This document shows, piece after piece, positions 4,293 to 49,680 of a stretch of 64,000 nt of DNA. The stretch spans positions 18,102,501 to 18,166,500 of the forward strand of contig NC_087090.1 of assembly GCF_963855985.1 (NCBI RefSeq). Reading direction: 5' to 3'. A program made the position numbers and the translations under genes. Position 1 is the stretch's first letter. Each line of letters begins with the position of its first letter. The notes beneath the pieces were generated by a model, which made no database searches, was not told the origin of the DNA, and worked only from the letters and a program-made list of their open reading frames with translations. The stretch is from Ostrinia nubilalis. Lineage: Eukaryota > Arthropoda > Insecta > Lepidoptera > Crambidae.

Positions 4293-4904
4293 TGTTACGG
4301 CTAAAGATAGGTATGAACATAAACTTAAGATTAGCCGGCTAAACTTAAGTTTATCTTCGACGAGGTGTTAATGTTAGTTTCTTCTATCTTTAGCCGGCTA
4401 AACTTAAGTGTAACCGCAGGCCCTTGGCTAAAAATGTAAAAGAAAATGGAAAAGGAAACAATGTAATAATGTTTACTATTTTGACCTAAACTTTATTAAA
4501 AAATAATCACTTTCATTACACATACTTTTATGTAACTATGTAGGTATTCAAAATTACAATTATTTCAATAACAAGATATTAATTACTTAAAATAATATCT
4601 ACCTAATCATTAAAATAAAATAATAAGGAACCATTTGGTTATTGCAGGATCTTCTGTAGGTATTTAAAATTACAAAATGCGCGTTGTCTCTTCACCGCCC
4701 CCTCAAGCCCTCCGCCCGCCTGGCGCGCCCATCGAATACATTTTTAGCCGTTTCGTTTTGGCTAATGTGCACATTAGCCGGCTAAAGATGGAATATCACG
4801 ACGCAAACTAACATGTTATCGAACTTTAGCTGCTTCTCGAAGATAAACTTAAGTTTAGCCGGCTAATCTTAAGTTTATGTTCACACCTATCTTTAGCCGT
4901 AACA
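4293..4904. mobile_element. Long-TIR MITE with TA target site
   Basis: The two ends are near-perfect inverted copies over about 75 bp (TGTTACGGCTAAAGATAGGT at the left end). TA flanks both ends (4291-4292 and 4905-4906; the surrounding TATA makes the exact target duplication ambiguous). The palindrome TTAGCCGGCTAA occurs four times, two near each end, next to CTTAAG. The middle (about 4440-4740) is AT-rich and non-coding, with a short GC-rich strip near 4690-4730. There is no transposase, so it is non-autonomous. Confidence 0.8.
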
Positions 4905-4906
4905 TA

Positions 4907-7578: not shown

Positions 7579-7580
7579 TA

Positions 7581-9111: not shown

Positions 9112-9113
9112 TA

Positions 9114-10215: not shown

Positions 10216-10588
10216 TATAGGATTTTTCAATGTTACAAAAAAAATTAAAAAGTGAACTTACCTTTTTTCTATTTTTAGATGCACTAAGTCATTACCTAAA
10301 AACTGATATAATACCTTGGCTTTAAATCAACTAATCTAGGTGCTAGCTACACAGGAGATGCAGCGGTGGAAAGGAGAGGTGGGAATAGTCCCGTAACTTC
10401 TACCTCACTTTGTATAGAATTGAGGTACAGCTATTATACGAGTACTCAACCGCTGAGGAGCTCAATAGTTAACAATAGTGACAATAAAATAACTGAACGT
10501 CAGAAAGGTTCCGGAGTGGAGGCGTGGGTCATCCCTAGCTTTGTCCCTACCGTGACGAGTGGGAATTTTTCTAAAATCTCAAGATGGA

Positions 10589-24740: not shown

Positions 24741-25039
24741 TGTTAGCGACGGAATATTATTGTATTATGTAACGGTAGTTTAAGAACAATTTTTATTTTC
24801 TATTGGAGGGTAACTCGGTGTCGTTGGTACGCGACGCGGTAGTTTTATTCGCACACAATTTCACGCGTCTTCCAGTCTGCTGCCAAACGCCCTCGGAGCG
24901 ACACCGCGTTAGCCTACCGCGCGCAAGAAACACGTGTTTGATCAAAAGTGTACTAAACTTGCAAATAATCGCAATAAACTGTTTTGTGAACTTTTAAAAC
25001 GGCGTTATTTTTACATCGGAGCGAACCTGACCCCCCACA
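24741..25039 (+). repeat. BEL left LTR
   Basis: It begins TGTTAGCGACGG and ends GACCCCCCACA (TG...CA). It contains AATAAACTG at about 24,971, a possible poly(A) signal. It differs from the right LTR only at the two bases after GTGTTTG (AT against CC). Confidence 0.95.
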
Positions 25040-25092
25040 GCTGGTCATTCGGCCGGATCAGTCCGTCCGATTCGCCACGTTGTACGAGTAAA

Positions 25093-28000
25093 ATGGTTCT
25101 CACGCGTAGTGACCGTAAAAAACTGGTGTCCGCAACTGTGCATACCGAGACAATGAACGATACTCATCTCAAAGGCAGTGTAAAATCCGAGCCCGTGAAA
25201 ACGTCACAAGTGCCACCGCAGCATGCAACGTCGTGTCAGTGGCCACACCCGACACGTCAACCGACCGCAGAGGCAGGACCGTCGCACATATCAGTTCACA
25301 AACTGGACCTGTCTCCTGAGGAAGCACCACGAGACCTCACGTCACGAATATCGACGTCATCCTCAGCTAAAGCAAGGCGAAAACGGTTGGAACTTGAGGC
25401 AGCGAAGGAAAAGGCCAGGATACAGATGGAGTTGATCAATAAAAAGCTAGAAGCAGACCTAGCTGACCTGGAAGATGAATACAGTCCACCAAATGGAGAC
25501 CGCGAGAGCATTCATACTCGCACCGACGTCGAGAAGTGGCTGGACCACAGCCAGCATGAGATGGAGAAGGAGCAGCGAGCCCCCCACAATGGTAAACCCC
25601 CGGGCAAGCTGAATCCACAAAATGGTGCCATCGAGATGCTGACGAGCGCACTGAAGCAGCTAGCCACTACTCCCGTTCATGGACCCAACCCGCAACTACT
25701 GAGTCGTATGAGCATCCCAAAGGACTTACCTGAGTTCGCTGGAGACCCCATGGAGTGGCTTCACTTTAAACAGTCCTACGAGGAGTCAACACAAATATGC
25801 GGCTTTACCGACAAGGAAAACGTCTGGAGGCTTCGAAAATGTCTTCGAGGACCTGCAAAAGAAGCTGTATCTGCATTATTGATTTGTGCAACGTCACCCG
25901 ATCAGCTGATGTCTACATTAGAGCTCAGATTTGGTAACCCAGATTTTATATTGACTAAAATCACGCAAGATGTACAGAAGTTACCACCGTTGCCATTGGA
26001 TTATCAAAGTGAAATAGTGCCTTTTGCTGTTAAAATCCAGAATTACGTAACAGCAGTACGTGCAGTGGGGCGTGACGAATACCTACGCGGTGTTCACCTA
26101 GCGAATATTATTTTGGCCAAGCTGCCCACTGTACTAGTTTCCAAATGGGCGGATTACTGTTACCCTAGATTGAAAGGAGAAATTGGTAAGTCAAGAATTG
26201 ACATGATTTCTGATTTCCTTCACGAGGAGGCACTAAAAATGTCAACCACGGCCAACGTTACTATATCAGCTCAACGTTACAATCAAAACAAATACAGACA
26301 GCACGAAAGTAACGCTAGAAACTCACAAAGTTTACTACTTCAACACTCCGACGCTAAGAGCGAGCATAGTGAAAAATGCAACTATTGTAAACAAGATGAA
26401 CACCAGCTGACAAGTTGCAAATCATTCAAGAAAGCATTACGCAAAGATCGATGGCGCCACGTCAAGCGATACGGCTTATGTTTTAAATGCCTACTATCGC
26501 GGCACGGCAGAGATAACTGTACTGCGCCCGCTTGCGATCAAGACGACTGCGGCGGGGCGCATCACCGGCTGTTACACAACCCTCCGCAGCGGCACGGGGC
26601 CGAGGCGACCGCCGAGAGCAAGAAGACCTCATCGAGTACGTCAACTACCGAGACTGTGGCCCATATGAGTGTTACGGACAAAAAAGTGCTATTGAAAGTA
26701 GTGCCGGTCGAAATTCACGGTCCTAACGGTAAGATAAGTGCGTGTGCGTTATTAGACGACGGGTCTACAATATCAGTGATAAGCTCGCAGCTGGCTGCGC
26801 GCGCAGGGTTGCGCGGCGGCCGCAGCGAGCCCATGCGTGTGCGCGGCGCGTGGGGCGACGATGCGCTCGTGTGCGCGTCGACAGCGCTCACTCTGGACTT
26901 GTCTAGTAAGGGAAGTGATAACAGATTGTTTACAATTAATTTGCGAAGTGTTGATAACTTAGATTTGCCTGTTCAAGAGTTTTCACTAGCTAAATGTAAA
27001 GAGTATGATCATTTGAAAAATGTAACTATAAACTGTAATGATTTGTGTAAGCCAGAAATATTATTAGGTCAAGACAATTATCATTTGTTAATGCCTTTAG
27101 AGATTTATGTCGGTAAAAACAATGAGCCGTTAGCTACACGAACCCCCCTGGGCTGGTGCGTGCACGGAGTAATGCACTTGCCGTGCGCTGGTTCTTCTTC
27201 TCCCTACACCACCTTACTCATTTCAGCATCAGCCTCTGATGATGAACGTGCTCTTCGGGACCTCAGTGATGAGGTGCGGCGCTCCTTTTCTATAGATGCT
27301 TTAGGAGTGACAGGTAAACCACGACAGAACAAAGACGAGGTGCGCGCGGTGGCCATGCTGGACGAGGGTGCGCAGCTCATTGACGGCAGGTGGCACGTCA
27401 ACTTGCCGTGGAAGGACCCAAACTGTAAGTTACCTGACAGTTACCCTAATGCACTTTCCCGACTGCACAGCGTTGAGAGGAAAATGTCAGCTGACCAGGA
27501 GTACGCGAGTAGGTACAGGGAGCGTGTAAAACACTTGCTAGAAAATAATTTTGCCCAAGAAACGCAAAATACCGAACGGTCGCCAAGAACTTGGTATTTA
27601 CCCCATTTTGGGGTAAATAATCCTAATAAAAAAAAGTTGCGACTCGTGTTCGATGCGGCCGCTAAAGTCTATGGTGAGTCATTGAATGATTTCCTACTCA
27701 CAGGGCCTGACCTACTAAATTCTTTATTTGGCATAATGTTACGTTTTAGAATAAATAAAGTTGGAGTCACCGGGGACATTAAAGACATGTTCCTACGCAT
27801 TAAAATAAAACCTGAAGACCAATCGGCTTTAAGGTTCTTATGGAGGGATGAATCTTCAGGTGAGATAAAGACGTATTCAATGACGTCACTGATATTTGGA
27901 GCAAACTGTTCGCCGTTCGTCGCGCAGTTTATTAAAAACAAAAATGCGCAGCTGCATGAGTCATCACAGCCCGCCGCCGCAGCCGCTATCTACACGCAGC

Positions 28001-30555
28001 ACTACATGGACGACTATATAGATAGTCTACCGGATGAAACCACAGCCATAAGTATGGCACGGAATATAACGGATATTAACAAGAAGGGTGGTTTTGAGAT
28101 CCGCAACTGGACTAGTAATAGCCTACAGGTGTTAGATAGCTTGCCAAAGGAGACTTTAGGTGACGCGGCCGTTAAGTTTAAATCTAACGAACAATACCAA
28201 GGCGAGCGAACGCTGGGAATGATTTGGTACCCGGCCCAAGATGAACTAGGTTTTGACGTTTCATTGAAACGTATTCCCGACGGCATTGTAAAAGGTAAAC
28301 AAAGACCGACTAAACGTCTGATGCTTGCGGTAGTCATGTCTATTTTTGATATATTTGGTTTTCTTACTCCATTCACCATACAGGGCAAAATAATGCTTCA
28401 GGATACCTGGAACCATAACATTGGCTGGGACGAAAAAATCTCAGACGATGTTTATCAAAAATGGTGCAGCTGGATTGATCTATTAAAAGAAATACCAAGT
28501 ATACGCATTCCACGTTATTACGTAAGGGCCGGTGCGAGCGAGACGGAGTCTGCGTTTACTACGAGTGAAAGGGAGACCGATAGTGCATCGCCTACGCCGC
28601 TGCTACGAGATTCTACGCGGCATCGAGTCAGTGAACGCGTTACGGATAACGAGTGTGCTACGGGCCATGCTACGAACGGGTCTACGACTGGTAATAATTA
28701 TAATAATTTGCAATTGCATGTTTTTAGCGATGCTTCATCGAAGGCGATGTGTGCCGTAGCCTACTGGAGATGGGAACACAATGGAAACATACACATCGCG
28801 CTTATAACTAGCCGGGGCCGCGTTGCTCCGTTAAAGCCGACTACGATACCTAAAATGGAGCTGCAGGCCGCCTTGTTAGCGGCTAGACTCGCAAAGACAA
28901 TCGCTGAGGAGCACGGACGCATGAAAGTCGAGCAAAGGTATTTTTGGTGCGACTCGACCACAGTGCTACAGTGGATTAACAATGACACGCGGCAATATAA
29001 AACATTCGTAGCAAACCGGCTCGGCGAAATAGATGACTTAACGCGAGCTACTGAGTGGAGGTATGTGCCTACGAAGTTGAATATCGCTGACGTTGGTACT
29101 AGGGAAACTTATGACGTCACGGTGTTTAGAAATGAATGGTTCACGGGACCTTCATTTTTATACGGAGATGAGACTACTTGGCCGCGCCGTGATTTCACTG
29201 CTTTATGTGACAGTGACCTGGAGAGAATAAACTTAATTAAACAGGAAAGTAACAACTTACTCGTACCTATACTCGACGTTAGTAGATTTTCATCATGGTT
29301 GAAGCTGGTGAGAGTGATGGCTACCGTGTTGCGCTTTATTAATAAATGCAGGAAGGTTGCATCGTCGAGCCTGTTATCAGACATGGACCTAGCTGAGCGG
29401 TTTCTGATTAAACAAGCGCAGTTGGATAGTTTCGCCTCGGAAATATCTGCAATAAAGAAAGGAAAACGCATAGAAAATAACAGTCGACTACTTACCTTGT
29501 CACCGATGCTCGATGAACACGACGTGCTGCGTTGCGGAGGCCGCATTGACGCCGCCACCGGAGTCTCACCTGAAACTAAAAGGCCTGTAATTTTAGATGG
29601 AAAACACCACGTCGCTCGTCTGATAGTGAAACACTACCACGAGAAGGCTGCTCACGGCAACCAAGAGTCGGTAGTCAACCATCTGAAACAAAGATTTTGG
29701 ATTATAAAATTGAGACCAACTGTTAAATATGTCTCATCGCGATGTATGGTATGCAGAATAAGGAAGGCTAAGCCCGAAATACCAAGGATGGGTAACTTAC
29801 CTGCTGCCCGCGTAGCTCACCACCAACGTCCATTCACTCATTGTGGGATTGATCTGTTTGGCCCAATGACCGTGACAGTTGGCCGTCGACATGAGAAAAG
29901 GTATGGTGTAATTTTCACATGTCTTACGGTGCGCGCTGTCCACTTAGAAATAGTCCATTCAGTCAGCACAGATTCGTTGATTATGGCACTCAGGCGCATG
30001 GCAGCGCGCCGCGGCTGGCCGCGACATCTGATGTCAGACAACGGGACTAACTTGCGAGGAGCTGACACAGAACTCAAACGATCGATCAAGGAACTGGACG
30101 AAGGAGTGCTCCGCACTGAAGCTGCAAACAACGCAACTGAATGGACATTCATACCACCTGCGAGTCCACACTGGGGTGGGGCATGGGAGCGACTTATACG
30201 AAGCATCAAAACTTCACTTAAAATCATCTTGAAGGAACGTGCACCTAGGGACGAGGTTTTGAGTACTCTTCTTACAGAAGTCGAGAACATCGTCAATAGT
30301 CGTCCTCTCTCTCATGTCTCTGTGGAACCTGGCAGCGACGAGACACTAACACCCAACCATTTCTTGCTTGGAACTTCTTCGAATCTTCCAACTCCCGGAA
30401 GGTTCAGCAGCGATGACCTGTACCTGCGCAAACAGTGGCGTAAGTCTCAACTACTTGCAGATTATGTTCTGGAAACGCTGGATCAACGAAATTCTCCCAG
30501 ACCTCGTACCGAGACGCAAGTGGAACCAGGAACAACAGTCGTTGAAGGTAGGTGA
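25093..30555 (+). CDS. BEL/Pao gag-pol polyprotein, 1,820 residues
   Basis: The start at 25,093 is the first ATG after the left LTR; the open frame extends upstream into the LTR without biological meaning. Seen in order: charged N-terminal region; DUF1759-like gag domain from about residue 212 (LPEFAGDPMEW); CX2CX4HX4C zinc knuckles starting at C429 and C463; protease motif LLDDGST with D556; RT ending in Y971-M-D-D974; a CTACG-coded linker; RNase H starting at FSD1213ASSK; integrase H2C2 (H1514 to C1551 and C1554); DDE core D1587, D1649 and E1699. All catalytic residues named are present. The frame ends early, because a frameshift near 30,466 diverts it into 30 unrelated codons; the C-terminal domain continues in another frame to 30,727. 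Function: copying of the element through an RNA intermediate. It is a retroelement, not a host gene. Confidence 0.95.
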   Translation: MVLTRSDRKKLVSATVHTETMNDTHLKGSVKSEPVKTSQVPPQHATSCQWPHPTRQPTAEAGPSHISVHKLDLSPEEAPRDLTSRISTSSSAKARRKRLELEAAKEKARIQMELINKKLEADLADLEDEYSPPNGDRESIHTRTDVEKWLDHSQHEMEKEQRAPHNGKPPGKLNPQNGAIEMLTSALKQLATTPVHGPNPQLLSRMSIPKDLPEFAGDPMEWLHFKQSYEESTQICGFTDKENVWRLRKCLRGPAKEAVSALLICATSPDQLMSTLELRFGNPDFILTKITQDVQKLPPLPLDYQSEIVPFAVKIQNYVTAVRAVGRDEYLRGVHLANIILAKLPTVLVSKWADYCYPRLKGEIGKSRIDMISDFLHEEALKMSTTANVTISAQRYNQNKYRQHESNARNSQSLLLQHSDAKSEHSEKCNYCKQDEHQLTSCKSFKKALRKDRWRHVKRYGLCFKCLLSRHGRDNCTAPACDQDDCGGAHHRLLHNPPQRHGAEATAESKKTSSSTSTTETVAHMSVTDKKVLLKVVPVEIHGPNGKISACALLDDGSTISVISSQLAARAGLRGGRSEPMRVRGAWGDDALVCASTALTLDLSSKGSDNRLFTINLRSVDNLDLPVQEFSLAKCKEYDHLKNVTINCNDLCKPEILLGQDNYHLLMPLEIYVGKNNEPLATRTPLGWCVHGVMHLPCAGSSSPYTTLLISASASDDERALRDLSDEVRRSFSIDALGVTGKPRQNKDEVRAVAMLDEGAQLIDGRWHVNLPWKDPNCKLPDSYPNALSRLHSVERKMSADQEYASRYRERVKHLLENNFAQETQNTERSPRTWYLPHFGVNNPNKKKLRLVFDAAAKVYGESLNDFLLTGPDLLNSLFGIMLRFRINKVGVTGDIKDMFLRIKIKPEDQSALRFLWRDESSGEIKTYSMTSLIFGANCSPFVAQFIKNKNAQLHESSQPAAAAAIYTQHYMDDYIDSLPDETTAISMARNITDINKKGGFEIRNWTSNSLQVLDSLPKETLGDAAVKFKSNEQYQGERTLGMIWYPAQDELGFDVSLKRIPDGIVKGKQRPTKRLMLAVVMSIFDIFGFLTPFTIQGKIMLQDTWNHNIGWDEKISDDVYQKWCSWIDLLKEIPSIRIPRYYVRAGASETESAFTTSERETDSASPTPLLRDSTRHRVSERVTDNECATGHATNGSTTGNNYNNLQLHVFSDASSKAMCAVAYWRWEHNGNIHIALITSRGRVAPLKPTTIPKMELQAALLAARLAKTIAEEHGRMKVEQRYFWCDSTTVLQWINNDTRQYKTFVANRLGEIDDLTRATEWRYVPTKLNIADVGTRETYDVTVFRNEWFTGPSFLYGDETTWPRRDFTALCDSDLERINLIKQESNNLLVPILDVSRFSSWLKLVRVMATVLRFINKCRKVASSSLLSDMDLAERFLIKQAQLDSFASEISAIKKGKRIENNSRLLTLSPMLDEHDVLRCGGRIDAATGVSPETKRPVILDGKHHVARLIVKHYHEKAAHGNQESVVNHLKQRFWIIKLRPTVKYVSSRCMVCRIRKAKPEIPRMGNLPAARVAHHQRPFTHCGIDLFGPMTVTVGRRHEKRYGVIFTCLTVRAVHLEIVHSVSTDSLIMALRRMAARRGWPRHLMSDNGTNLRGADTELKRSIKELDEGVLRTEAANNATEWTFIPPASPHWGGAWERLIRSIKTSLKIILKERAPRDEVLSTLLTEVENIVNSRPLSHVSVEPGSDETLTPNHFLLGTSSNLPTPGRFSSDDLYLRKQWRKSQLLADYVLETLDQRNSPRPRTETQVEPGTTVVEGR

Positions 30556-30727
30556 TTTGGTTCTAATTGTGGATCCAGGAGCGCCACGCAACGTGTGGCC
30601 CAAGGCAGTAGTTCAGCAGGTGTTCCCAGGGGCAGACGGTCGAGTAAGGGTGGTTGAACTAAGAACCAAGTCAGGTACGCTGAAGAGGTCTGCAGCGCGC
30701 GTCGCAAGAATCCCTTTAATTGATTAG
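30466..30727 (+). pseudogene. Frameshifted C-terminal (DUF5641-like) end of the BEL polyprotein
   Basis: The frame ending at 30,727 carries the expected BEL C-terminal block (FWKRW at about 30,467, then LKVGDLVLIVDPGAPRNVWP and a TKSGTLKRSAARVARIP-type end). The main frame is left by what looks like one extra base in TATGTTCTGG. The domain itself has no internal stop. A copy or sequencing error cannot be told apart from a real lesion. Confidence 0.85.
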
Positions 30728-30739
30728 TGCTGTGCCAGC

Positions 30740-30753
30740 ACTGGGGTGGGGAG
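30740..30753 (+). other. BEL polypurine tract
   Basis: CTGGGGTGGGGAG lies directly before the right LTR, where plus-strand DNA synthesis is primed. Confidence 0.7.
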
Positions 30754-31052
30754 TGTTAGCGACGGAATATTATTGTATTATGTAACGGTAGTTTAAGAAC
30801 AATTTTTATTTTCTATTGGAGGGTAACTCGGTGTCGTTGGTACGCGACGCGGTAGTTTTATTCGCACACAATTTCACGCGTCTTCCAGTCTGCTGCCAAA
30901 CGCCCTCGGAGCGACACCGCGTTAGCCTACCGCGCGCAAGAAACACGTGTTTGCCCAAAAGTGTACTAAACTTGCAAATAATCGCAATAAACTGTTTTGT
31001 GAACTTTTAAAACGGCGTTATTTTTACATCGGAGCGAACCTGACCCCCCACA
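30754..31052 (+). repeat. BEL right LTR
   Basis: It is 299 bp, with the same ends as the left LTR, and is followed by the ACAGT target duplication at 31,053-31,057. The 64-codon ORF inside (30,816-31,010) is LTR sequence. Confidence 0.95.
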
Positions 31053-36912: not shown

Positions 36913-38226
36913 CCTGTTATCTTACGACCATTCTCGTGTAGGCAGATACCCCGTATCAAAACAATCCCGTGTGGATCCCGGACACGCACGCCCCTCTCTA
37001 AAGCAAATGCAGGTGGTCCGTGAAAGTATAAAAATGATTTGTAAACCACCGCTACCGCCATTGCCGGCGACTAACGCGCCGAAAGTTTTTATTGTAATTC
37101 GCGGCTCTCGCGCGCAAATTCGTCTTAAGTCGCCCATCTTGGTTATGGGACGCGCATTTCTCTTTATTGCATACCTTTGCCGGAGATTTATGCCCGTCTC
37201 AGTGTAAGCTGTGTCATAAAGTCTACTTTATTCAATAGCCCGTGGTTAATAAATCATACAATCCGTAACCTCTTATTATTTACGGAAAATGGAATAGCAT
37301 ATCTAAGATCAGAGACTACACAAATCGGCTTCGAAATATTGTCTGTAAATCTATTTCTCATTCATAAGTACAGAAGAGAAAAGGTCGTAACGGCTCTCCA
37401 TATCAACCTACTCAAAATAATGAGCATATTTTCAGAAGTTGGGCAATTCGGGATGTCAAACCAATCCTATTTGGGTTAAGTACCTTTATCCTCCTTTTGT
37501 TTCCATACACGCCGTATGTTCCCTTTGAATAACTGTAGCTATGTTGATTTTATTTTATTCTCAGTAAGTATTGGCTTTTTTGAAAAAGTACCGCTTTGTG
37601 ATAGGTAATAATGTGGGCCAGTTCTGTGGCCACTAGATAAGACCCTCATAAGTCTGAGCTCTATTGAACCTTCAGGGGTTTGACTTACGACCGCTGGCTT
37701 TTTCTCTTGTCATAGATTTATAGCCGGTTTAAAGAACGAAATAACGCCATGTATTTTTCAATCTTTCCTTTCACCCTTCCCCGACGCACTAAAAGCCGGC
37801 AAATCATTATCAGCGCGGTACATAAAGCATCCAAGAGGTTCTGTGAGCACACGTAGTATGCTGTACTCGTATATGTCGAGACAATGCGAGAACAAATGTG
37901 TCGAGGAGATAGCGGTATATCGTTGCAGTAGCGTCTCCAGGGGTTAGGAGAAATAGGGACAGTTCTGGACCTAAGCTTGCTGGAACTTTGTGTAATTTGA
38001 CGCGGAGTCTGCGTTACACATCAATTTCAGGGCTCAGGGCACGTTTATTCTTTGAATAAGTAATATCTACCTATCGTGCTATTAGAGGCCGGCGTATGAC
38101 TGAAGTAAGTATTGTTTCATAATCATCCATTCTTGATTTACTATTATTCTACGAGTAGGTACAAGAACTTTAAAATACTTTGAAGTATTCAAATTAATTC
38201 ATATTTCCATCTTTAACGGCAAGAAA
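36913..38226. other. Non-coding stretch; overlapping small ORFs
   Basis: Four overlapping frames on both strands at 36,858-37,207 reflect a GC-richer island (about 37,030-37,140) rather than a gene: none has a domain or splice signal. A frame at 37,177-37,479 is likewise unrecognised. Confidence 0.35.
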
Positions 38227-39193
38227 TATAGGGTCCTTCTAAATCAGCTACGTTCCGTTTAATGGGAGCATGTATACGTCACACTGAATACGTTCCCAAA
38301 GTTTGAGCCAAAAATTCAGGCTAGTTTCCGAGATAATTAAGGAAACAACTTCATTTCTTATCAACCCAATACAACACCCTGTTCAGCTGATTCACTACTA
38401 CACCGACAAAAACGCACGCACACGAGCTTACGTAATGGCCGCCATTGCGCTTGTGCTGCCGTTGGGCCACTGGCCGCGAACACAAGAGTGCCGCCGGACG
38501 ACGGACCGGGCGCCACACAAGCTATTCTAGGGCTACTACTAGTTATTTGAGGAATTAAATTAAGCAGAAAATTAAAGTTTATTTATTTTTGGTAACATAA
38601 AAAAATCTTATGTGGTAAGTACTTATTTAGTGGCCTTAATGGAATGATGTTTATTCAAAAATTCGTTAAAATACTTTTGCGCTTGTAAAAATCTTTCATT
38701 TCAAACGTAGCAACGAAACGAAGCAAAAAGTTAGTTGCCGAAATCAATGACTTATTTTTATGCCATACACAACTGGGATAGTTACCATGACTATGAAATT
38801 TAGAATTACGGTTATTATTACGATAAAGCAGGCACATTTTTCATGTTAATTTTAATCGCTTAATATCCCCTTAGCAAATTAAATAAAAATGTGATTCGTA
38901 ATTGACTCGATCATAGCAGAAACTAAACGCTACTATCGAATTATCTACCTGTGATTATCGGCAGTCTTTAGTATTCCGAAGTAAATAAGTAAATAATTGT
39001 TCCCAACTATCAATTTTAAACTGAAATAATAATCATTAAAATCATCGTAGAAACAAAAAAAAATTATAAAAGTAAATAATGATAGTTTTATTATTATTAA
39101 GATTAGAAAGAATTTTGGAGTTGACATCCTTATTTATGCGTGGCGGAGTCGGTGGTATCAAAGACAGCCGTCCCTCACAATAGCCGACCGCGC

Positions 39194-39653
39194 TAGTGTT
39201 GTAAGAACCTCGAGTCTTTAAAGTCTTTATTTTGAGACTTGAGTTTATTTTTAAGACTAGGACTCGTTAGTCACATGAATAAGGGAATAATTGAGTCTTC
39301 CGAGTCCTTTCGAGTATTTTAAGTTCTTTGAGCTAGACTGAATCATGACATGAACTTGAGTTGGTGTATACTAATAGGCAATAATGAGTGATTTCATATC
39401 ATCATCCGTATGTTATATCCTAATTGAAAATAAAATAAATCGCACAATACAAATGTAATATCAATAAAATTGCATTAAACGCAAATAATCGAATCAGAAG
39501 TATCCATCTAAAGACTGACGATTTTCGTAATCAAAAAGTTAAAACGGTCCAATAAAATAATAAACACACAGTCTTAATTCATAGCTATTTTATTTTCTTC
39601 AAACTTTTAATAAGTAAGATTCCAAGACTCGAGTGTCGTATCGTACAACACTA
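39194..39653. mobile_element. Nested inverted-repeat element inside copy B
   Basis: This is the counterpart of 5,860-6,323 in copy A, with the same TAGTGTTGTA tips and CTCGAGTC inner repeats. Confidence 0.5.
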
Positions 39654-40542
39654 GCCGGCGCGCAGCAAACGAACTTTTAGACACGTGCCGCCGCCTTTAG
39701 ACACGTGCCGCCGGCCGCCGGCTAGCGCAATGTACACTCACCAAAATAAAATTAAGAGATGCAACAAACTTTTTTTTACTATGCAAATTAAAATTGTGTT
39801 TATTGTTAAATCACAGGTACATAAGATAGGTCATAAATAAATACCAAGTTGGAACGGAAATGATTCGGAAATTTTATTTAACTAATTAGGTACCTACCTA
39901 CCTCATCTACTTTTCTATTGTAATAGAAATGATGACATTAACGATTAATTTAAGAATGGACTTTGATTTAGGATAAATGGAATATCAATACAAACAAATT
40001 GAAGAGTTTTATTTGCTTCAATAGTCTAATTTAATGTTTCTAAATAATTGACTAGGCCATTGAATTACCTTCACAAAACAATAAGTTCGATTAATTTTTA
40101 ATTATTATCTGTTATAGGATATTTTACCATGAAATACTCAACATCATAATTTAGATTCGAATCAATTGAAATCGAAAGCAAGCAGATAAAATAATAAACA
40201 AATAAGTTTCTTTTTTGTCGTCGACTGTACGCTTATGCCAACTTTTCGGCTTTTGCTTTGGCGGCGTCGGCGTCTTTGTGTCAACAAAAGGCGTGCGGCT
40301 TGTCGGCATTTGTCGGCGCGTGCGCTTTGATTTAATTCAGTTTTTGATTAGCTTTCTTGTGTGAAGGTGCGTTTTGTAGTGCTCGTGAAGTGAACTATGA
40401 CGCACAGATGTACAAATGCAAATAAATTTACTAAGACGCGCCTTAAAAATCATGGCCTTTGCTGATTTTTCGATGGTATCGTGAGTCCGTTTTACTGTGA
40501 TTAACATAAGATAATAAGGATAGACAACGATATGAGAGTAGG

Positions 40543-40981
40543 CAGTGGCGGGGCAAGACCTAAATTTGATGTGGGCAAGACAGATTTCGCGAGGCCTTGT
40601 TCTGTGGCGACCTGAAGACGGATTTTATAAAAAAAAAAAAAAAACGGGTCAACGGTCTATTCATTGACAGTTTCTGATTTCTTGATTCAGTGATTATTTT
40701 TAAAGGAATATTGCGCCAAAGAATAATGTTCGTCACTTAAAACCGTGTTGTTGCTTAATTTTGTGTCTGGTTATGGCTGAATTTGTTTGGAAAAAAATAT
40801 ATTTTTTAACTACATTGTTTAGCTATCAAGAATTTATATTTAATAGTCAATGTTTGCATTTATTGTGATATTGTCATCTTCACCTTGTATACATTTTTTC
40901 AAAATTTTTGATGCGCGAGGCCCCTTGTTCCGCGAGGCCGTAGGCGGTGGCCCACGTCGCCTACGCCTTACGCCGCCACTG
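40543..40981. mobile_element. hAT-type non-autonomous element, 439 bp
   Basis: It begins CAGTGGCGGGGCAAG and ends TTACGCCGCCACTG. The octamer AGAGTAGG is exactly duplicated (40,535-40,542 and 40,982-40,989), and copy A shows the empty site with one AGAGTAGG (about 7,205-7,212). It has an internal poly(A)-like run near 40,630. Non-coding. Confidence 0.92.
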
Positions 40982-41351
40982 AGAGTAGGCCTGCAACATT
41001 AAAGTGATAGCTCGCCCAATCAGTCGATCAGCTAATCGGCTATCAGCTGTGACGACTGCTGTGAGTTGTTATGACGTGAGTGTAAACAACAAAAAAGTGT
41101 GCAGTGGTAGTGAGCGTTGTGTGTGTTGTGTCTCGTGTTCCTGTGCAGAATGAATACACTACAGCTTTGTTGTGTGAGTAAAAAATACAGCATGTTCCAT
41201 TATGTAAGACGAAATGAATTTTTATTTTTGTTAGAAAATGTAACTTTGTAAAATCATTATAAAACACATACTCAAATTTGGTGAACTTGTTCAGTGTACC
41301 GTATAGATGCCCCCATTAAAAGGAATGTAGCTAGTTTAGAAGGACCCTGTA

Positions 41352-43293
41352 TAAAATAGGTAACATAAAGTACACACTTGACTAGATCTACATAACTTTC
41401 GGCGAGTTGCGCGGTTTTCATTTTCCTTCACAGAACCGAGCCTTGTTTTCACATAGTTATTTCAAGTTACGGCTGACACGACCTTAAGGTAAATTCCTCG
41501 AATTTAAGACTTTCCATCCTTTAAAGAAGTGGCTCCAAAGTTTCTTAATTTACTAAGTTATGTTTTTCGTTGTCTAGACTGGAATCATGATTATTTTATC
41601 TCAAGAAATATAAGGGTTATAAAAGTTTGAGATACTTTTAATGCTAATTTGCTAATGAATTAGTTAGAAAGTTTAGAAACACAATCCACTTTGTATTTTT
41701 TGTGGCTTTTTCAAATGTTTCATGTTATTTCGCATACAGACACAAAACAATTTTGATTGTTTTTCTGACGTTCATCGTCTCGATTATCCCGATATGTGCA
41801 TCAACGTGGTCACCCCAACCGACGTACCCAATAACATTTTATTCTCCTCCTTTCAGATAATGATAATATTGTGTTTAACGTTTCCATTTGCCGGATTTCA
41901 CAATTGTGTCGCCGATGTGTTTCGTTCGTTCGATCCCAATTCGTACGAATGTGGGTGGACGAAAATTATTATAAGTGCTCTTAGGTACTATGTGGAAAAT
42001 CACTTGCAATTACATACTGTAAGTATGGAAGTATTTTCATCAATGACAAAGAAAATGAGGACTTTTATTTTGATTTTGTGGAGAACCTAAGATTTTATGA
42101 TGAACATAAAACCAAGTCTTATCAAGCTAAGTAATAATAAATCTGAAAGTTAAATCATCTAATTACTAAATCATAATTACTACTAACTGTCGTTATGTCG
42201 TTAGTCCAGGTAGAGAAGAAATTCCCTCACAAATTGGAATGTAAGTACTGTCGTACTGTTTACACGACCTGTGTCAGTCCGGCCCGGATCGCTCTCGCCT
42301 GTATCGCCCTTTGAAGCCCGCTAAAGGACACCTATCATTAGGCCCTCACGGTCAGTGGCTATTTGTGGAGGCCAGTTTGTGCCAGCCAGCCTTTGTGCTG
42401 TCACAACCCTCGAAACAAGCCAAAGGGTGGACAACTGTAATTGAAGGGTTACGGAATTTTATTGAGACCGCTTGTATTGGCTATTTGGTGGCTTAAAACC
42501 TATTTTGTTATTGATTTTTATTTGGAATACAAAATTCCTTGATTTTTGAATATCAACTTTGATATGAATGGAAATATGCCGACACGTAAGCTATAGGTAT
42601 TTACATAGTTTACCAAGAAGTTTATTAATACTTCCAGATTTTGATTTGATAAATAAAATCAAATTCTATTAAGTTAGTATGCAGGCCCTTTTTAGGGCTT
42701 TTGGGACACACACTTCCCAAATACCTATAGCTTGCTCTACCACCACTTCGGGACGACATATCGGCTGAATCTAGTATTAATTTTCCTAATTGATGCAGAC
42801 TTCTGTAAGGCTTACGGTCTAGATATTAGTAAAAAGAATCCAAGGCATCTTGCATCTAGTCCTTTGTTCTGTCAAAACAGTCCCAAAGACAGAGGCACAA
42901 AGGCAGTGAAAAACGGCCCACCCGGAGGCGGCAATTAAATATAATTTAGTGGGTTACAAATTCTAGAGGCACTCGCCCTAATAACCGTTACTATAACGGC
43001 GTTATTGCGCCGCGTAAATATGCCGGCCGCCGCAATTGATATGGACCAAGTTTGCCCACTTATCGTTAGTGCTTGAGCTACGATGGTTCTAGCTATAGAA
43101 ATAAAACATAATTCAATTCTCTTCCCTTCATAGAATATTGTTAATGACAATGTATCAGCTCAGAATTTAATAAACACTTTAGTGAATATTGCAGTACCTA
43201 CCAACATCTTTTAGTTGTAAAATTGAAATAAAAACTCAAATCTAGCGAAATACCGTAAGACTTTTACCTTTCGAGTATCAATCATAACACTAT
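41352..43293. other. Mostly non-coding stretch
   Basis: Apart from one candidate exon (next entry) I see no gene. Small frames at 42,311-42,496 and 42,732-42,938 are not recognised. A GC-richer, TAAT-containing island at 42,960-43,035 may be regulatory. Confidence 0.35.
41857..41984 (+). CDS. Candidate internal coding exon, family unknown
   Basis: TTCTCCTCCTTTCAG precedes an open 128-nt stretch that ends in TTAG followed by GTACTATG, so both splice signals are plausible. Its translation includes LCLTFPFAGFHNCVADVF, then RSFDPNSYECGWTK. It is part of a longer 122-codon open frame (41,722-42,090). Codon choice looks protein-like, with GTC, GCC, GAT and TTC used. I do not recognise a family and no neighbouring exon was identified, so this may be chance. 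Confidence 0.2.
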
Positions 43294-43297
43294 GTAC

Positions 43298-43544
43298 TAT
43301 TAGAGGCCGGTAGATCTATTCTCATAAATAAAACACTGGATACTCATCTTTCACAGTATATTGCCTTATTTTAGATACAATTCATCACTTAGCACAAAAG
43401 CGCGCGGAGTCGTCTCCGCGCGTCCCTCTATTCTGACGTTTGATCCTAGTGTGACATTGACGTATTGTCAATGTCACTATGACAGCATCTCATTGGCCAC
43501 AACGATACCGTTATTTTAACGTTTTAGATTTTTCATGATTAACA
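43298..43544. repeat. 247-bp LTR, left copy
   Basis: It starts TATTAGAGGCCGG (TG changed to TA) and ends GATTAACA. It contains ATAAATAAAAC near its start and two perfect inverted repeats: CGCGCGGAG/CTCCGCGCG (43,401-43,422) and GTGACATTGAC/GTCAATGTCAC (43,451-43,477). Confidence 0.88.
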
Positions 43545-43639
43545 GTTCGGCCATCCTACATTTCCTTCGCCCTCGAAGGTCTACTCTACTCATAGCACAC
43601 TTGACGCCTCGTATTGGGATCCGGCTGTGCCACCATTCG

Positions 43640-44160
43640 CACCATACGCTGGCCGTGAATGCGCTCATAGGCGCCCACGACGTGCCCTGGCTCACGCGCG
43701 CCCTGCTGCACCGCCTGCCCGCGCACTCGCTGGCGCGCGACCTGCAGCGCGCCGAGCGCGAGCCGTTGCCGCTGCTGGCGCTGGCCGCGCTGCTGCTGCC
43801 CGAAGCACGCGCGCTGATCGCGCTGCTGCTGCCCGATGCACGCGCGCTGACCGCGCTGCTGCTGCCCGAAGCACGCGCGCTGACCGCGCTGCTGCTGCCC
43901 GAAGCACGCGCGCTGATCGCGCTGCTGCTGCCCGATGCACGCGCGCTGACCGCGCTGCTGCTGCCCGATGCACGCGCGCTGACCGCGCTGCTGCTGCCCG
44001 AAGCACGCGCGCTGACCGCGCTGCTGCTGCCCGATGCACGCGCGCTGACCGCGCTGCTGCTGCCCGATGCACGCGCGCTGACCGCGCTGCTGCTGCCCGA
44101 AGCACGCGCGCTGACCGCGCTGCTGCTGCCCGAAGCACGCGCGCTGACCGCGCTGTTGCT
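43640..44160 (+). pseudogene. Captured coding-like fragment with minisatellite
   Basis: A plus-strand frame reads HTLAVNALIGAHDVPWLTRA, then LLHRLPAHSLARDLQ, then EREPLPLLALAALLLPEARA before entering the 33-bp repeat. Codons are almost all C/G-ending (CTG, GCC, CGC, GAC), as in highly expressed or GC3-rich lepidopteran genes and unlike the AT-rich surroundings. It predicts helical, leucine-rich protein. The family is not recognised. The frame has no proper start of its own: the ATG used by the open frame (43,535) is inside the LTR. I read it as an exon copied from a host gene, with its end expanded into a minisatellite. Confidence 0.5.
43790..44152. repeat. 33-bp minisatellite, 11 units
   Basis: The unit CTGCTGCTGCCCGAAGCACG followed by CGCGCTGACCGCG repeats eleven times, with GAA/GAT and ACC/ATC variants, and then a partial unit. 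Because 33 is a multiple of three and the unit lacks stops, four reading frames on two strands stay open through it; only the plus frame continuous with the upstream coding-like block (LLLPEARALTA) is likely to be original. Confidence 0.95.
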
Positions 44161-44299
44161 GCAGTTTCATGACAATACCACGTGTCAATAGTTCATGATG
44201 TCTCCCACACAAGGCACGGCATCTTCACAATTCCTGATGTCACACAGACATCCCACACAGCTTGTCATGACATGTCTCACATAGCTTGTCATAACATGT

Positions 44300-44515
44300 T
44301 ACACACAGCTGGTGGCACCCGGTGGACACGCGGCAGGAGCAGCCGCATGCCGACCGCGCCGCGCGCCACGCCGCACTGCACCGAGCTGGCTGTCGCGCCG
44401 CTGCGGCCCGCCGCGCTTGAGCCGCCGCCGCCGCCCACGCGCGAGCACCTGCAGCTGGCGCCGCTAAGCGCGCTGCACGCCACGCACCTCTGCACGCTGA
44501 CTACTTTCGGCTCTG
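44300..44515 (+). pseudogene. Second captured coding-like fragment
   Basis: After a TTACACACAG acceptor-like site, a plus frame gives TELAVAPLRPAALEPPPPPT, then REHLQLAPLSALHATHLC, with the same C/G-ending codon bias as the first block. The first ~70 bp read better in another frame (DTRQEQPHADRAARHAALHR), which suggests an internal frameshift. It is separated from the first block by 140 bp of AT-richer, intron-like sequence. No family is recognised. Confidence 0.4.
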
Positions 44516-46400
44516 CTGACACAAGAAATCATCATACAGTACATCTATACACCATCGTCATCATCCTTAATGATTTATGGGATTAGTTAGGGTTCTTTGA
44601 ACATTTTCACTTTAAACCCACACAGATTAGGCCATTCCACATAGCTTGTCATGTCATGCCACATGTCCTCCTCACACAGATATCAGGAGATCTCACGCAG
44701 AATGACAATGTCCGCCCAGCTTCATGACAATGTCCACTGGTGTATGATCAACAAGTACATCATATACATTATTATTATTATTAATTTCAAACCATTCCCA
44801 TAACCACAACATTATCAAAATATTAAGATGAATAACACAACTACTTATATCATCACTGACAACAAAACAATGCAAGTGAAACATATTGATGCTTAACATT
44901 GTGTTTGGGTGAACACCAAGTTGCTCCACACACAAATGCAACTTTATCAAAATAAACTTCTTGTTATTATCTTAGGTAACAGCACAGTTGCAAATACTTC
45001 AATGAAGTTACCATCTCCTCAAAGCATTCACAAGAAATACCCAAGTACTTCAAATAACTTTTTGCTTAAGGTTGCTAGCGGCAGTTGGGAAGTTCTAAAG
45101 TCTAGCAGTAGACTGTAGCTAATTAATTATTAAAATCTGTTCACACTCAAGTTAATTGTATGCAATTTCATGCCAATGACAAGAATAAGCACAGTTAAAC
45201 AACCAAGCCGCAGTGGCACTGCTAGTCTCAGCCCAACCCTTGCAATAAAACATTAATTCAACTCACCAAATATCACAGCTGATTCCTTTTGTATTGCATT
45301 TTCACTCACCAAATATCACAGCTGATGCCTTTTGTATTGCATTACCTTCTGCCCAACTCCAAATCACTTATTACCCTTGCTCAGTGTTAAGCTTCTTCAC
45401 TCTGGTATTGTGCTTGACTGATTTGCTCACCACAGGGCCAACCCGCAGAAAGTTAAGTCACCACATCTAAAACTCAAGTCAAATCTAAAAATATGCACAC
45501 TCAGCATGCTACAACCAGTAACCTTTTTATTAATCAGCTAATAAATAACCTCAAGATTAAAATCATTTTCACCATATGAGAATAACCAACAATAATGACT
45601 GGTACACAAGAATACCCTTTAAGTTAAATGTACCACATTCTATATCTTTTATGTAATATCATAATTGGATAAATTTTGGTCACCCACACTAATTTTCAAT
45701 TTTAGTGATACAACCCAAATCACTACTGGCAGCAGAAATTAATTGATAAGTTGGAAAAGTTCAATATTAACATTATCTTTACTCAAAATATAAAATCACG
45801 TAACATAATAATAATAATGTTTCCCAATAATTGAAGTATCAATCACTATAAGAGTACCAAAAATACACCACATGTTCAACGGCATAACTGGCTGCTTTAC
45901 TTAATTTCAATTTACAAATTAAGCTATTTAATAGATTTTATCTCATCTTATAGTGCTCAACATCAAGAAAGAAACATCATGATACTAAAACTGGTTTACA
46001 CAACACAGACCTTAGCTTCAATTTACTTGAATAAAACTAATTATTAATTCTTCTCCAAAATAATGCCAAGAGGTTACTCGGGCATGATCACCAAACTTAT
46101 TTAATTTATCTGACCAAATTCTATCTATTCTTTATAGATTTTAAATCTCAACAAGTTATTCTTTGCAGAATGTAAACATGAACAAATGAACACCGTTCAA
46201 TTTAATTTGATTTACTAAAATAGTTTATTAGGCATTGCAATTAAAGTGAGCACATACCATAGCTTTCACACACATTCCTGGCATTATCAGTAAAGACTGA
46301 CAATACCTATAACATTTGATGCATCATTCACTTCCATGCATTATTTTGCTCAAAAAGGAAATGTGTTAATATTGTTGCTGTTGGAATAATCGATAATAAT
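44516..46400. other. AT-rich interior of the LTR-bounded unit
   Basis: No ORF with a recognisable domain. It holds repeated CACATAGCTTGTCAT-type sequences (44,260-44,310 and 44,637-44,655), an ATT microsatellite near 44,768, and a 43-bp tandem duplication at 45,261-45,342 (ACTCACCAAATATCACAGCT start). The sequence resembles intron or flanking DNA carried along with the coding blocks. Confidence 0.5.
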
Positions 46401-46412
46401 AATAAATCGTAC

Positions 46413-46427
46413 CTGCTCTGGGGCCAT
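46413..46427 (-). other. Possible captured first coding exon (5 codons)
   Basis: On the minus strand, ATGGCCCCAGAGCAG is followed directly by GTACGA, i.e. five codons (MAPEQ) and a splice donor, with a 5' UTR-like stretch up to about 46,700. This could be the captured start of another gene on the opposite strand from the coding-like blocks. It is too short to be sure. Confidence 0.2.
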
Positions 46428-46707
46428 CGTTAGTCAAATTGTTCACCACTTACGTGACCACAAGACAAGTTACGGAGGGAGTATCTTCATAATTTGCGTC
46501 ATCATTTCTCGTACTTAAATACTTTTCTGCATCTCACACCTTTGTCAGCGTGGTTTCCATGACATTCTCTCTTCATCATATTCAATTAGAACCATAGAAT
46601 CGTGGGCGTTTTGTGATAACATTCGTGAAAAATAACACGAAACATTGGTCACCTGGAACACTTTGAAATCACGTTACTATCATAGGTTTCAGATCTCACT
46701 TCTGAAC

Positions 46708-46954
46708 TGTTAGAGGCCGGTAGATCTATTCTCATAAATAAAACACTGGATACTCATCTTTCACAGTATATTGCCTTATTTTAGATACAATTCATCACTT
46801 AGCACAAAAGCGCGCGGAGTCGTCTCCGCGCGTCCCTCTATTCTGACGTTTGATCCTAGTGTGACATTGACGTATTGTCAATGTCACTATGACAGCATCT
46901 CATTGGCCACAACGATACCGTTATTTTAACGTTTTAGATTTTTCATGATTAACA
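46708..46954. repeat. 247-bp LTR, right copy
   Basis: It starts TGTTAGAGGCCGG and ends GATTAACA. It is identical to the left copy except for the second base, and is followed by the GTAC duplication at 46,955-46,958. Confidence 0.88.
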
Positions 46955-46958
46955 GTAC

Positions 46959-48068: not shown

Positions 48069-48785
48069 TAGGGTCAGATGTTCAACAATGAAACAATGGT
48101 ACACAATAAAACATTGCAATATTTCTTAAATGCTGCGTTGCCATATCGTGCACTATATCGCGTAAGGATACTTTCGACAATACCCCGCCGCACCTCAGTT
48201 CGTGTCCGCGCCACGTGTGAGAAGACATGTCTTTGGAGCATTATTTATTTTTTTCACCAAAAGGCAAGTATTTTTGTCGTTCTTTAAAGATTTTTGATAA
48301 AAATATGGTTGATAAATTTATATTTTTCATGATTACCTAGCATTACACATATATCATAGACTAAGTGGAACTAAATTATATGTTAAAAGTGTTACAAATT
48401 AGTGATATTTTTTTGGGGTTATTAAAATAAACCCTATGTAGTCAACAATGAAACAGTTGCATGATGGACACAATGAAACAATGTTTCATTGTGTACCATC
48501 TTGTTTGATTGTTTATTACCATATACCAAACAAAATCTACTGTCCGTGCAAATAATCATTTTTAAGGCTATAACCCTTAAATGCATGATTTTTTATTTAG
48601 TTATGAAAAAAATATTTCAATTAGATTTTTAGTCACAGGGGGAAAAATAAAAAAAAAAATCTAAGTACGAAAAAAAAGTATATTTTTGAAAATTTACAGT
48701 ATGTAGCCAAATGTCTACACCATGCGTTATGCCATAAAATTTTTCGATATTAATAGTTCTATGGTTTGCTTATTTGGCTTTTCTT

Positions 48786-48983
48786 TTCAGCATGTTTGGC
48801 TCGCTATCTGAAAAGGAAATTGAGACAGCTCTTGCTGCTTTAAATGATGGTGCAGTCTCAGAAGATGATGAAAATTTAGATGATGATAACATCGATTATT
48901 ACCCAAACGTACGGGATTTATTGCACGAGTCCATAGATCATAATCTACCCTTGGAACATAACGAAGACCCTCCCATAGTATGA
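48786..48983 (+). pseudogene. piggyBac-type transposase, first exon remnant
   Basis: After a polypyrimidine tract and CAG (TTTTCTTTTCAG), a frame starts MFGSLSEKEIETALAALNDG and continues with an acidic stretch (SEDDENLDDDN), as at the N-terminus of piggyBac-like transposases. It ends in a stop at 48,983. The same sequence is present in reverse at about 49,390-49,580. No catalytic Asp region is present. Confidence 0.6.
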
Positions 48984-49102
48984 TGAGGAGCACATATTAG
49001 ATGGTGTTTCCTTAGCAGAACCTGTGGCGGGTACCTACTTCATCTGCGCAATCAAGTTCAGGTATTCCAGGAATTGCAGCTTGGAGGTTACGTAGCCGGG
49101 AG

Positions 49103-49300
49103 ATGATTTGGAAAAAAATAAATTCACCACCATGGGACGATGATCGCATTGCTTTTTTAGGGGATTCGGAACTGCCCACAGAAATATCTGACCTGGAGGA
49201 GCCATTTCAGTTCTTTGTCAAGTTCATAAACGATGACATTGTTTCGAAAATTGTAGACGAAACGAATTTATGCATTACTCAAAAAGGGTTTAGTTCATAA
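49103..49300 (+). pseudogene. piggyBac-type transposase, N-terminal domain remnant
   Basis: The frame includes a WKKINSPPWDDDRIAFLGDS block, then LEEPFQFFVKFINDDIVSKI and VDETNLCITQKG. The order W...LP.EI.DLE.PF.FF..F...IV.ETN is characteristic of the start of the DDE_Tnp_1_7 (piggyBac/PGBD) domain. It stops soon after, so only the entry to the domain remains; it is not functional. Confidence 0.78.
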
Positions 49301-49319
49301 TCGTGTCAGTTCTATTGAG

Positions 49320-49680
49320 ATTCGTCTCAATAGAACACGAAACACCATCTGATCTAATATTATGCTCCTCTTCATAGACTACTAGGGAGGATCTTCGTTG
49401 TGTTCCAAGGGTAGATTATGATCTATGGACTCCTCATCCAGATCATGCAATAAATCCCGTACGTTTGTTTAATAATCGATGTTATCATCATCTAAATTTT
49501 CATCATCTTCTGAGACTGCACCATCATTTAAAGCAGCAAGAGCTGCCTCAATTTCCTTTTCAATTAGCGAGCCAAACATGCTGAAAAGAAAAGCCAAATA
49601 AGCAAACCATAGAACAATTCCTATCGAACAATTTTATGGTATAAACGCATAGTGTAGACATTTGGCTACATACACAAAAA
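49320..49680 (-). repeat. Inverted copy of the transposase first exon
   Basis: Read on the minus strand this repeats 48,698-49,020 in order: GTAGCCAAATGTCTACAC, GGTTTGCTTATTTGGCTTTT, the CAG acceptor, the MFGSL start and the acidic stretch, up to the GAAGATCCTCCC block. Together with the first copy it forms an inverted repeat of about 320 bp with a ~300-bp spacer. Confidence 0.75.

What the first reader, a model, noticed from the sequence alone, without database searches (positions are those of the whole stretch)
43298..46954. Very young LTR-bounded unit that carries host-like coding sequence instead of gag-pol
Seen: 247-bp direct repeats with one difference, TGTTA...TAACA ends, GTAC outside both ends but not inside, and a 3.16-kb interior without any retroelement domain. 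The interior has two blocks with strongly C/G-ending codons (about 43,640-43,790 and 44,300-44,515) in otherwise AT-rich DNA. Inference: a non-autonomous LTR element captured pieces of a host gene, with intron-like DNA still attached. A missing primer site and polypurine tract make the mechanism unclear and unusual.
Basis: partly seen in the sequence, partly recalled or inferred. Interest (0 to 1): 0.75.

Follow-up and report, generated by a model that had tools for sequence, protein, structure and literature searches.

The report
Mobile DNA carrying Tsc1 gene pieces
This is one copy of a young jumping-DNA family in a corn-borer moth that has no genes of its own for jumping but carries a broken piece of the moth's growth-control gene Tsc1, and sister copies carry other pieces of cargo at or near the same spot.

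Summary
The finding is real and its core reading holds. Window 43,298-46,954 is one copy of a multicopy, non-autonomous, LTR-bounded family in an Ostrinia genome: 247-bp direct repeats with one difference, 4-bp target duplication GTAC, no retroelement domain found. The GC-rich blocks are a broken fragment of the resident gene Tsc1 (hamartin), residues about 25-191; the donor is open and on another contig. Sister copies without Tsc1 show the uninterrupted site; 11 of 12 Tsc1 loci show the same 3' joint at a 7-nt match CACGCTG, which suggests one capture, later amplified. The same LTR and edges also carry a BEL/Pao pol piece (7 loci) or an unidentified piece (1 locus); four loci are solo LTRs. 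Corrections: the AT-rich DNA is element backbone, not intron; the family's left end is TA, and TG in the window's 3' LTR is the exception. Canonical primer site and purine tract are missing. The - strand inner edge resembles the tRNA-Leu 3' arm, but only against a recalled tRNA. Transcription direction, helper and capture route (RNA or DNA) remain open.

The parts
43294..43297 (.). left copy of the 4-bp target site duplication GTAC
43298..43544 (+). left LTR (247 bp), begins TATTAG, ends TTAACA; contains two hairpins (43401-43422 and 43451-43477)
43545..43651 (+). conserved inner edge and leader shared with copies that lack Tsc1; inner start GTTCGGCC.TCCT.CA; ends at the capture site ACGCTG
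43652..44162 (+). block 1: Tsc1 (hamartin) fragment, about residues 25-46 joined to about 100-137, then tandem-amplified
43778..44162 (+). 33-bp tandem array, 11.7 copies, 96% matches, apparently grown out of the Tsc1 fragment
44163..44308 (+). AT-richer spacer; 44188-44260 is element backbone that in type 2 copies lies downstream of the cargo; holds degenerate 24-bp repeats
44323..44499 (+). block 2: second Tsc1 piece, about residues 65-96 (weak in protein; DNA 76% over 44323-44442) joined to about 134-191; ends at the 7-nt joint CACGCTG
44500..46707 (+). AT-rich, C-rich/G-poor backbone without detected coding capacity, mostly shared with type 2 copies; inner 3' edge CTCACTTCTGAAC at 46695-46707
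46708..46954 (+). right LTR (247 bp), begins TGTTAG in this copy
46955..46958 (.). right copy of the 4-bp target site duplication GTAC

Best explanation
A young copy of a non-autonomous LTR-bounded retroelement-like family of Ostrinia. SHOWN: the copies read consist of LTRs, two conserved inner edges and differing cargo; the cargo here is a broken fragment of the resident gene Tsc1, set into the leader at ACGCTG and present in many copies; copies lie in 4-bp duplications mostly centred on TA, and solo LTRs exist. INFERRED: one capture followed by amplification; the copies are moved in trans by the proteins of an autonomous LTR element through reverse transcription; Tsc1 entered by template switching at the 7-nt match CACGCTG; later copying slips made the 33-bp array and the internal deletions. 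The Tsc1 piece is very likely not a working gene (frameshift in block 2, differences spread evenly over codon positions).
For: LTRs and target duplication; many copies; 10 of the 20 two-LTR loci read have LTRs without a mismatch (one of them, L028, with 2 gap columns). Donor: of 57 proteins in the composite search 49 carry the ATG14 domain (the built-in control), 5 carry none, and the other 3 are hamartins (Pfam check). Shuffles reaching the observed score against three hamartins: block 1 as a whole 0, 0, 0 of 1000; its first part 0, 0, 4 of 2000; its second part 0, 0, 0 of 2000; main part of block 2 0, 0, 0 of 1000. DNA match to the resident gene E 7e-42, 82% including gaps. Joint: the uninterrupted site CACACGCTG|A is read in 6 of 6 type 2 loci, and CACGCTG|ACTACTT in 11 of 12 Tsc1 loci (L025 did not match the search pattern). 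Mismatches to the donor by codon position 5/50, 6/51, 4/51. Outside the element no hamartin match at E<=1 in the window with default settings.
Against: No canonical primer-binding site or polypurine tract on either strand; only an imperfect tRNA-like edge without the CCA complement on the - strand. Left end TA instead of TG. No autonomous partner identified. The donor stretch has no intron, so RNA as the intermediate is not proven. The left joint shares only about one base with the donor. Tsc1 and the BEL/Pao piece lie in opposite orientations, so they cannot both have entered by the usual same-sense RNA switch. Pfam does not recognise hamartin in the blocks.
Confidence: 0.83

Rival explanations
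1. Capture at the DNA level: a break in an integrated copy was repaired by copying from the Tsc1 gene, and the altered copy was then amplified.
For: The donor stretch is one open frame, so no intron loss is visible; the backbone lost nothing at the site; the left joint shares only about one base; the BEL/Pao cargo sits in the other orientation.
Against: The 7-nt match at the right joint fits template switching as described for Drosophila and Plutella (PMC9674220, section 10 read). In the comparison with 9.9 kb around the donor, element matches better than E 1e-10 lie only inside the coding stretch 4770-5283; a protein query could not have seen flanking DNA.
Confidence: 0.3
2. The family is an internally deleted derivative of an autonomous BEL/Pao element, transcribed from the - strand; the BEL pol piece in type 2 copies is an ancestral relic, not cargo.
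For: The pol pieces of L028 are collinear on the - strand (BEL residues 1153-1207, 1260-1377, 1378-1420), and the - strand carries the tRNA-like inner edge.
Against: 4-bp duplications against ACAGT (5 bp) read by me for the BEL/Pao element of this window (sequence); no LTR similarity between the two; Pfam support for the pol piece is weak (Peptidase_A17 E 0.024, under its cut-off); the Tsc1-bearing and short copies read lack it.
Confidence: 0.3
3. A local duplication or a piece of a resident gene between chance direct repeats.
Against: Many LTR copies on many contigs, target duplications, donor gene on another contig.
Confidence: 0.01
4. Not a retroelement: a DNA transposon or composite unit that happens to end in long direct repeats.
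For: No canonical PBS or PPT; ends TA...CA; target duplications with TA in the middle in 19 of the 21 loci where one was read.
Against: Identical LTR pairs in many copies, solo LTRs with duplications, strong strand asymmetry of the backbone (GC skew -0.25; none of 281 overlapping windows elsewhere in the 64 kb reaches it) and the tRNA-like edge fit replication through RNA.
Confidence: 0.07

Closest known systems
Non-coding LTR elements with internal tandem repeats of Culex (cqUNK families, PMC3286476, section 14 read)
   Same: LTR-bounded, 125-931 bp LTRs, about 1.6-14.6 kb, no coding sequence, tandem repeats inside, LTRs over 98% identical, 4-5 bp duplications where determined, no known autonomous relative.
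   Different: They have a sharply definable PBS and PPT; a host-gene origin of their repeats is not reported in that section.
PbTRIM of the harvester ant (PMC3532108, passages seen)
   Same: Non-coding, 4-bp TA-rich duplications, solo LTRs, tRNA-Leu primer site.
   Different: 480-781 bp, canonical PBS and PPT, no gene cargo mentioned in the passages seen.
LTR-mediated retrocopies, e.g. Pxyfem in Plutella (PMC9674220, passages and section 10 read); Tan et al. 2016 known only through citations there and in PMC8232201 (passages)
   Same: Fragment of a host gene inside LTR-element sequence in a moth, microsimilarity at the switch point.
   Different: In Plutella the flanking LTRs were not found and copies are W-linked tandem arrays; here LTRs, duplications and a form without the captured piece are present in one genome and copies are dispersed.
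Maize Bs1 (PMC5408686, passage seen)
   Same: LTR element that took part in making retrocopies of cellular genes.
   Different: Plant element; details beyond the passage were not checked here.
Helenus (PMC10886601, passages and section 16 read)
   Same: Non-autonomous, animal families make 4-bp duplications, tRNA-linked sequence.
   Different: Helenus has the tRNA-like sequence inside the LTR; no tRNA match was found in this element.

Membership tests
LTR retrotransposon (general) | long direct terminal repeats, near identical in young copies | tested here: met
LTR retrotransposon (general) | short target site duplication | tested here: met
   of 18 two-LTR loci 14 with 4 bp (for L038 the left LTR start is extrapolated), 1 (L030) read as 5 with the LTR start one base off, 3 none (L020, L024, L033; the last two with a truncated LTR); 4 of 4 solo LTRs; L041 and L042 4 bp
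LTR retrotransposon (general) | TG...CA termini | tested here: not met
   TA...CA in the other copies read; TG only in the 3' LTR of the window copy
LTR retrotransposon (general) | PBS complementary to the 3' end of a tRNA including CCA | tested here: not met
   no TGG in 60 inner bases on either strand; tRNA-Leu-like edge without the CCA complement on the - strand, recalled tRNA
LTR retrotransposon (general) | polypurine tract beside the 3' LTR | tested here: not met
   none on +; only an imperfect purine-rich stretch, GAAGGAAA at -24, on the - strand
LTR retrotransposon (general) | solo LTRs and dispersed copies | tested here: met
TRIM | under about 1 kb, non-coding, with PBS and PPT | tested here: not met
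   window copy 3657 bp; shortest copy read 1,257 bp by its coordinates; no canonical PBS/PPT
LARD (definition recalled) | over 4 kb, non-coding, with conserved PBS/PPT | tested here: not met
   window copy 3657 bp; no canonical PBS/PPT
Helenus | tRNA-like sequence within the LTR | tested here: not met
   no tRNA match up to E 5
BEL/Pao | gag-PR-RT-RH-IN coding region | tested here: not met
   no domain in the interior frames scanned; no tblastn match of the window's BEL polyprotein to the interior; type 2 copies hold a pol piece only
captured host gene (Tsc1) | donor in the same genome, captured piece flanked by element sequence | tested here: met
LTR-mediated retrocopy | loss of introns showing an RNA intermediate | tested here: inconclusive
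   donor stretch is one open frame without intron

The most novel reading that the evidence does not exclude
The LTRs and two short inner edges form a cargo shell that repeatedly swaps its passenger, is primed by an internal or 3'-truncated tRNA-Leu, and is transcribed from the - strand, so that tens of dispersed copies make antisense Tsc1 RNA and could feed small RNAs against the moth's own Tsc1, as the W-linked Masc retrocopies do against Masc in Plutella.
Probability: 0.08. Interest if true: 0.85.

Novelty: new variant of a known kind. Interest (0 to 1): 0.52.

Why it matters
Host-gene capture by LTR elements is often known only from remnants without LTRs, as in Plutella (PMC9674220). Here a form without the captured piece, the captured form, the donor and the joint sit in one genome, with LTRs young enough to show that the family moved recently. 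That makes the capture route, the minimal cis parts and the helper testable, and shows a fragment of a growth regulator (Tsc1, upstream of TOR; recalled) spread by a mobile element in a moth.

Tried and rejected
Local duplication: rejected by the genome copies and the distant donor. Relation to the BEL/Pao element of this window through its LTR: no similarity. Retroelement relics in the interior: none found. Small-RNA origin of the LTR or ribozyme: nothing at gathering score over the whole window; at E up to 5 over the element only sub-threshold miRNA and snoRNA model hits, best E 0.54. Tf1-type self-priming: no 8-nt match. Viral or prokaryotic relatives: none in 7 viral scans and one genome-contig scan. 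First protein searches with block 1 alone found nothing at E<=1; Pfam does not see hamartin in the blocks; tblastn of the hamartins against the window at default settings finds only one weak piece (P0055, E 0.29), and the low E-values come with composition correction and masking off, where GC-rich frames also gave spurious low values. The protein case therefore rests with their shuffles, and above all on the DNA match. The upstream part of block 2 matched hamartin weakly in protein (1276, 184 and 3 of 2000 shuffles reach it for P0055, P0056, P0057; an overlapping frame 362, 6 and 2 of 1000), but its DNA matches the donor. Papers: no paper held the terms hamartin + retrotransposon + Lepidoptera together; the other eight searches showed nothing on this family in the titles and abstract starts listed.
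Full report
What is there. The element is 3,657 bp, 43298-46954, with two 247-bp direct repeats that differ at one base and GTAC on both outer sides but not inside. With 1 difference in 247 the LTR divergence has a 95% range of 0.0001 to 0.022, so 'young' is fair but not precise. The interior holds a 33-bp GC-rich tandem array, two GC-rich blocks with coding-like 3-base periodicity, and an AT-rich remainder in which none of 8 scanned frames has a domain above cut-off. The GC skew of that remainder is -0.25; none of 281 overlapping 2.2-kb windows elsewhere in the 64 kb reaches that.

Where it is. ATG14 exons in the window match a protein of Ostrinia nubilalis (P0001; 100% over the 59% of the composite query that the exons make up; single exons 86-100%, where tblastn seems to run past exon ends). 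The own genome has 495 Mb in 52 contigs; the window is C3:18102501-18166500. I therefore write Ostrinia (nubilalis or a near relative); the species is an inference.

Mobility. The element query gives 106 matching pieces, with copies that cover the whole query or nearly so on C15, C6, C7, C19, C2 and C12. The LTR query gives 40 places at 97% or more, these being all that were scored of 961 first-look candidates and including the two of the window, so the true number is unknown. Besides the window I read 24 loci: 12 with Tsc1 (L019-L027, L038, L039, L043), 7 with a BEL/Pao pol piece (L028-L033, L041), 1 short copy with another cargo (L042) and 4 solo LTRs (L035, L036, L037, L040; no other module within the roughly 4.9 kb fetched on each side). 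They were chosen from the hit lists, not at random; a further 20 LTR loci that I asked for were not delivered, 3 of them came later. In one search, 14 of 18 two-LTR loci show a 4-bp duplication (for L038 with an extrapolated left end), one (L030) reads as 5 because the LTR start was set one base off, and three (L020, L024, L033) show none, the last two with a truncated left LTR; 4 of 4 solo LTRs show 4 bp. L041 and L042 add two 4-bp cases. TA is in the middle of 19 of these 21 duplications; the exceptions are CAAC and AAAC. LTR pairs without a mismatch: L021, L023, L026, L027, L028 (2 gap columns), L029, L030, L031, L039 and L042, 10 of 20; L022 has 7 mismatches and L024, L033 and L038 have damaged left LTRs. 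L038 also has an interruption of about 4.4 kb.

The cargo. The composite protein search (only the 7995 candidates sharing most words were scored) returned 57 proteins: 49 with the ATG14 domain and 5 without a listed domain, which I take as the control working, and three hamartins (E 0.013, 0.04, 0.49), which Pfam confirms as PF04388. Against these three, block 1 as a whole is reached by 0 of 1000 shuffles each time, its first part by 0, 0 and 4 of 2000, its second part by 0 of 2000 each, the main part of block 2 by 0 of 1000 each, while the leader peptide is reached by 1194-1687 of 2000. The resident Tsc1 gene lies on C19:88704-90266 in one uninterrupted open frame (L034 4477-6324). The other 41 hamartin hits of that search lie within residues 25-195 of the query. 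At DNA level block 2 matches the donor at 82% including gaps, E 7e-42, and other pieces match donor positions 4770-4864, 4913-5032 and 4998-5182. The order in the element (about residues 25-46, 100-137, then 65-96 and 134-191) is not that of the gene, so the fragment has been shuffled; the 65-96 piece is weak in protein and rests on DNA. Differences to the donor do not favour third codon positions (5/50, 6/51, 4/51), so there is no sign of coding selection.

The joint. Type 2 copies read ...CATTCGCACCACACGCTG|A... without interruption (6 of 6). Tsc1 copies read ...CGCTG|GCCGTGAA... or a slightly changed form at the left joint in 7 of 12 loci (small changes just before it in the window copy, L021, L023 and L039), and a shortened left joint with 48 fewer donor bases in the other 5; the right joint ...TGCACGCTG|ACTACTT... 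is seen in 11 of 12 (L043 was fetched later and not included). The donor reads TGCACGCTG|CTGG. The right joint thus lies in a shared CACGCTG, while the left joint shares only about one base. This fits a template switch with one primed jump, but a DNA repair route is not excluded. The shared right joint suggests one capture; no tree was made.

Backbone, not intron. The leader and most of the AT-rich part occur in copies without Tsc1, and the donor has no intron in the captured stretch. The piece 44188-44260, between the two Tsc1 blocks, is backbone that in type 2 copies lies after the cargo.

Other cargo. The type 2 piece aligns to the BEL polyprotein of this window on the - strand in three collinear parts (E 1e-23, 1e-23, 1e-5); Pfam support is weak (E 0.024). 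L042 keeps the leader up to CATTCGCAC and only about 18 bases of the other inner edge, with an unidentified piece between. The parts common to the types read are the LTR, the leader start and the short edge C(C/T)CACTTCTGAAC or CTCCCACTTCTGAAC.

Primer and direction. No TGG is present in 60 inner bases on either strand, and no purine tract on +. On the - strand the inner start matches the complement of a tRNA-Leu 3' arm at 17 of 21 positions (0 of 1000 shuffles), and the + strand inner start matches the complement of the tRNA-Leu 5' part at 11 of 12 (1 of 1000), but not over 21 positions (992 of 1000). Both use a tRNA sequence recalled from memory and a match that I noticed first, and only this one tRNA was tried, so they are leads. 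If the - strand is sense, Tsc1 is antisense and the BEL piece sense; if the + strand is sense, the reverse. The LTR has a TATA-like CATAAATA and AATAAA near its left end on +, which does not settle it. I put the - strand at about 60%.

Known context. Culex has non-coding LTR elements with tandem repeats (PMC3286476, section 14 read); the harvester ant has a TRIM with 4-bp TA-rich duplications and a tRNA-Leu primer (PMC3532108, passages); in Plutella, Masc fragments in LTR-element remnants produce piRNAs and are explained by template switching (PMC9674220, passages and section 10 read). The element works like these, but canonical PBS, PPT and TG end were tested and not met, so I do not file it as a TRIM or LARD.

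Verdict. A real, recently mobile family with a captured and amplified host-gene fragment; the kind is known, while forms with and without the capture in one genome and the variety of cargo are unusual.

Noticed in passing
window 24741-31052: A complete-looking BEL/Pao element: LTRs of about 299 bp 99.3% alike, one 1873-aa open frame, ACAGT on both flanks, GGGGTGGGGAG before the right LTR and TGGTCATTCGGCC after the left one.
   Followed up: partly
window 4889-7582 and 38209-41353: Two copies of another repeat, 97.7-98.2% alike, with about 82-bp inverted ends; the second copy has about 436 extra bases at 40544-40979.
   Followed up: partly
window 9111-9573 and 9756-10218: 463-bp inverted repeat, 93.5% alike, around a short centre: a large hairpin element.
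   Followed up: no
window 48699-49673: Inverted repeats (88%) flanking a frame with a weak transposase match (DDE_Tnp_1_7, E 0.043, below cut-off).
   Followed up: no
window 1714-3449: Exons of the autophagy gene ATG14 on the - strand.
   Followed up: partly
window 43401-43422 and 43451-43477 (and right LTR): Two hairpins in each LTR; the LTR folds better than shuffles on both strands (z -3.5 and -4.45). Role unknown.
   Followed up: partly
L042 464-1158: Short sister copy (4-bp duplication GTAT, LTRs without mismatch) with an unidentified cargo starting TAGAGATGAAACGGATATCCGG.
   Followed up: partly
L043 489-1848: Tsc1-bearing copy whose expanded array leaves a 530-aa open frame; probably open only because of GC-rich repeats.
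   Followed up: no
L038 3378-7780: About 4.4 kb of other sequence interrupts the backbone of a Tsc1-bearing copy, probably a nested insertion.
   Followed up: no
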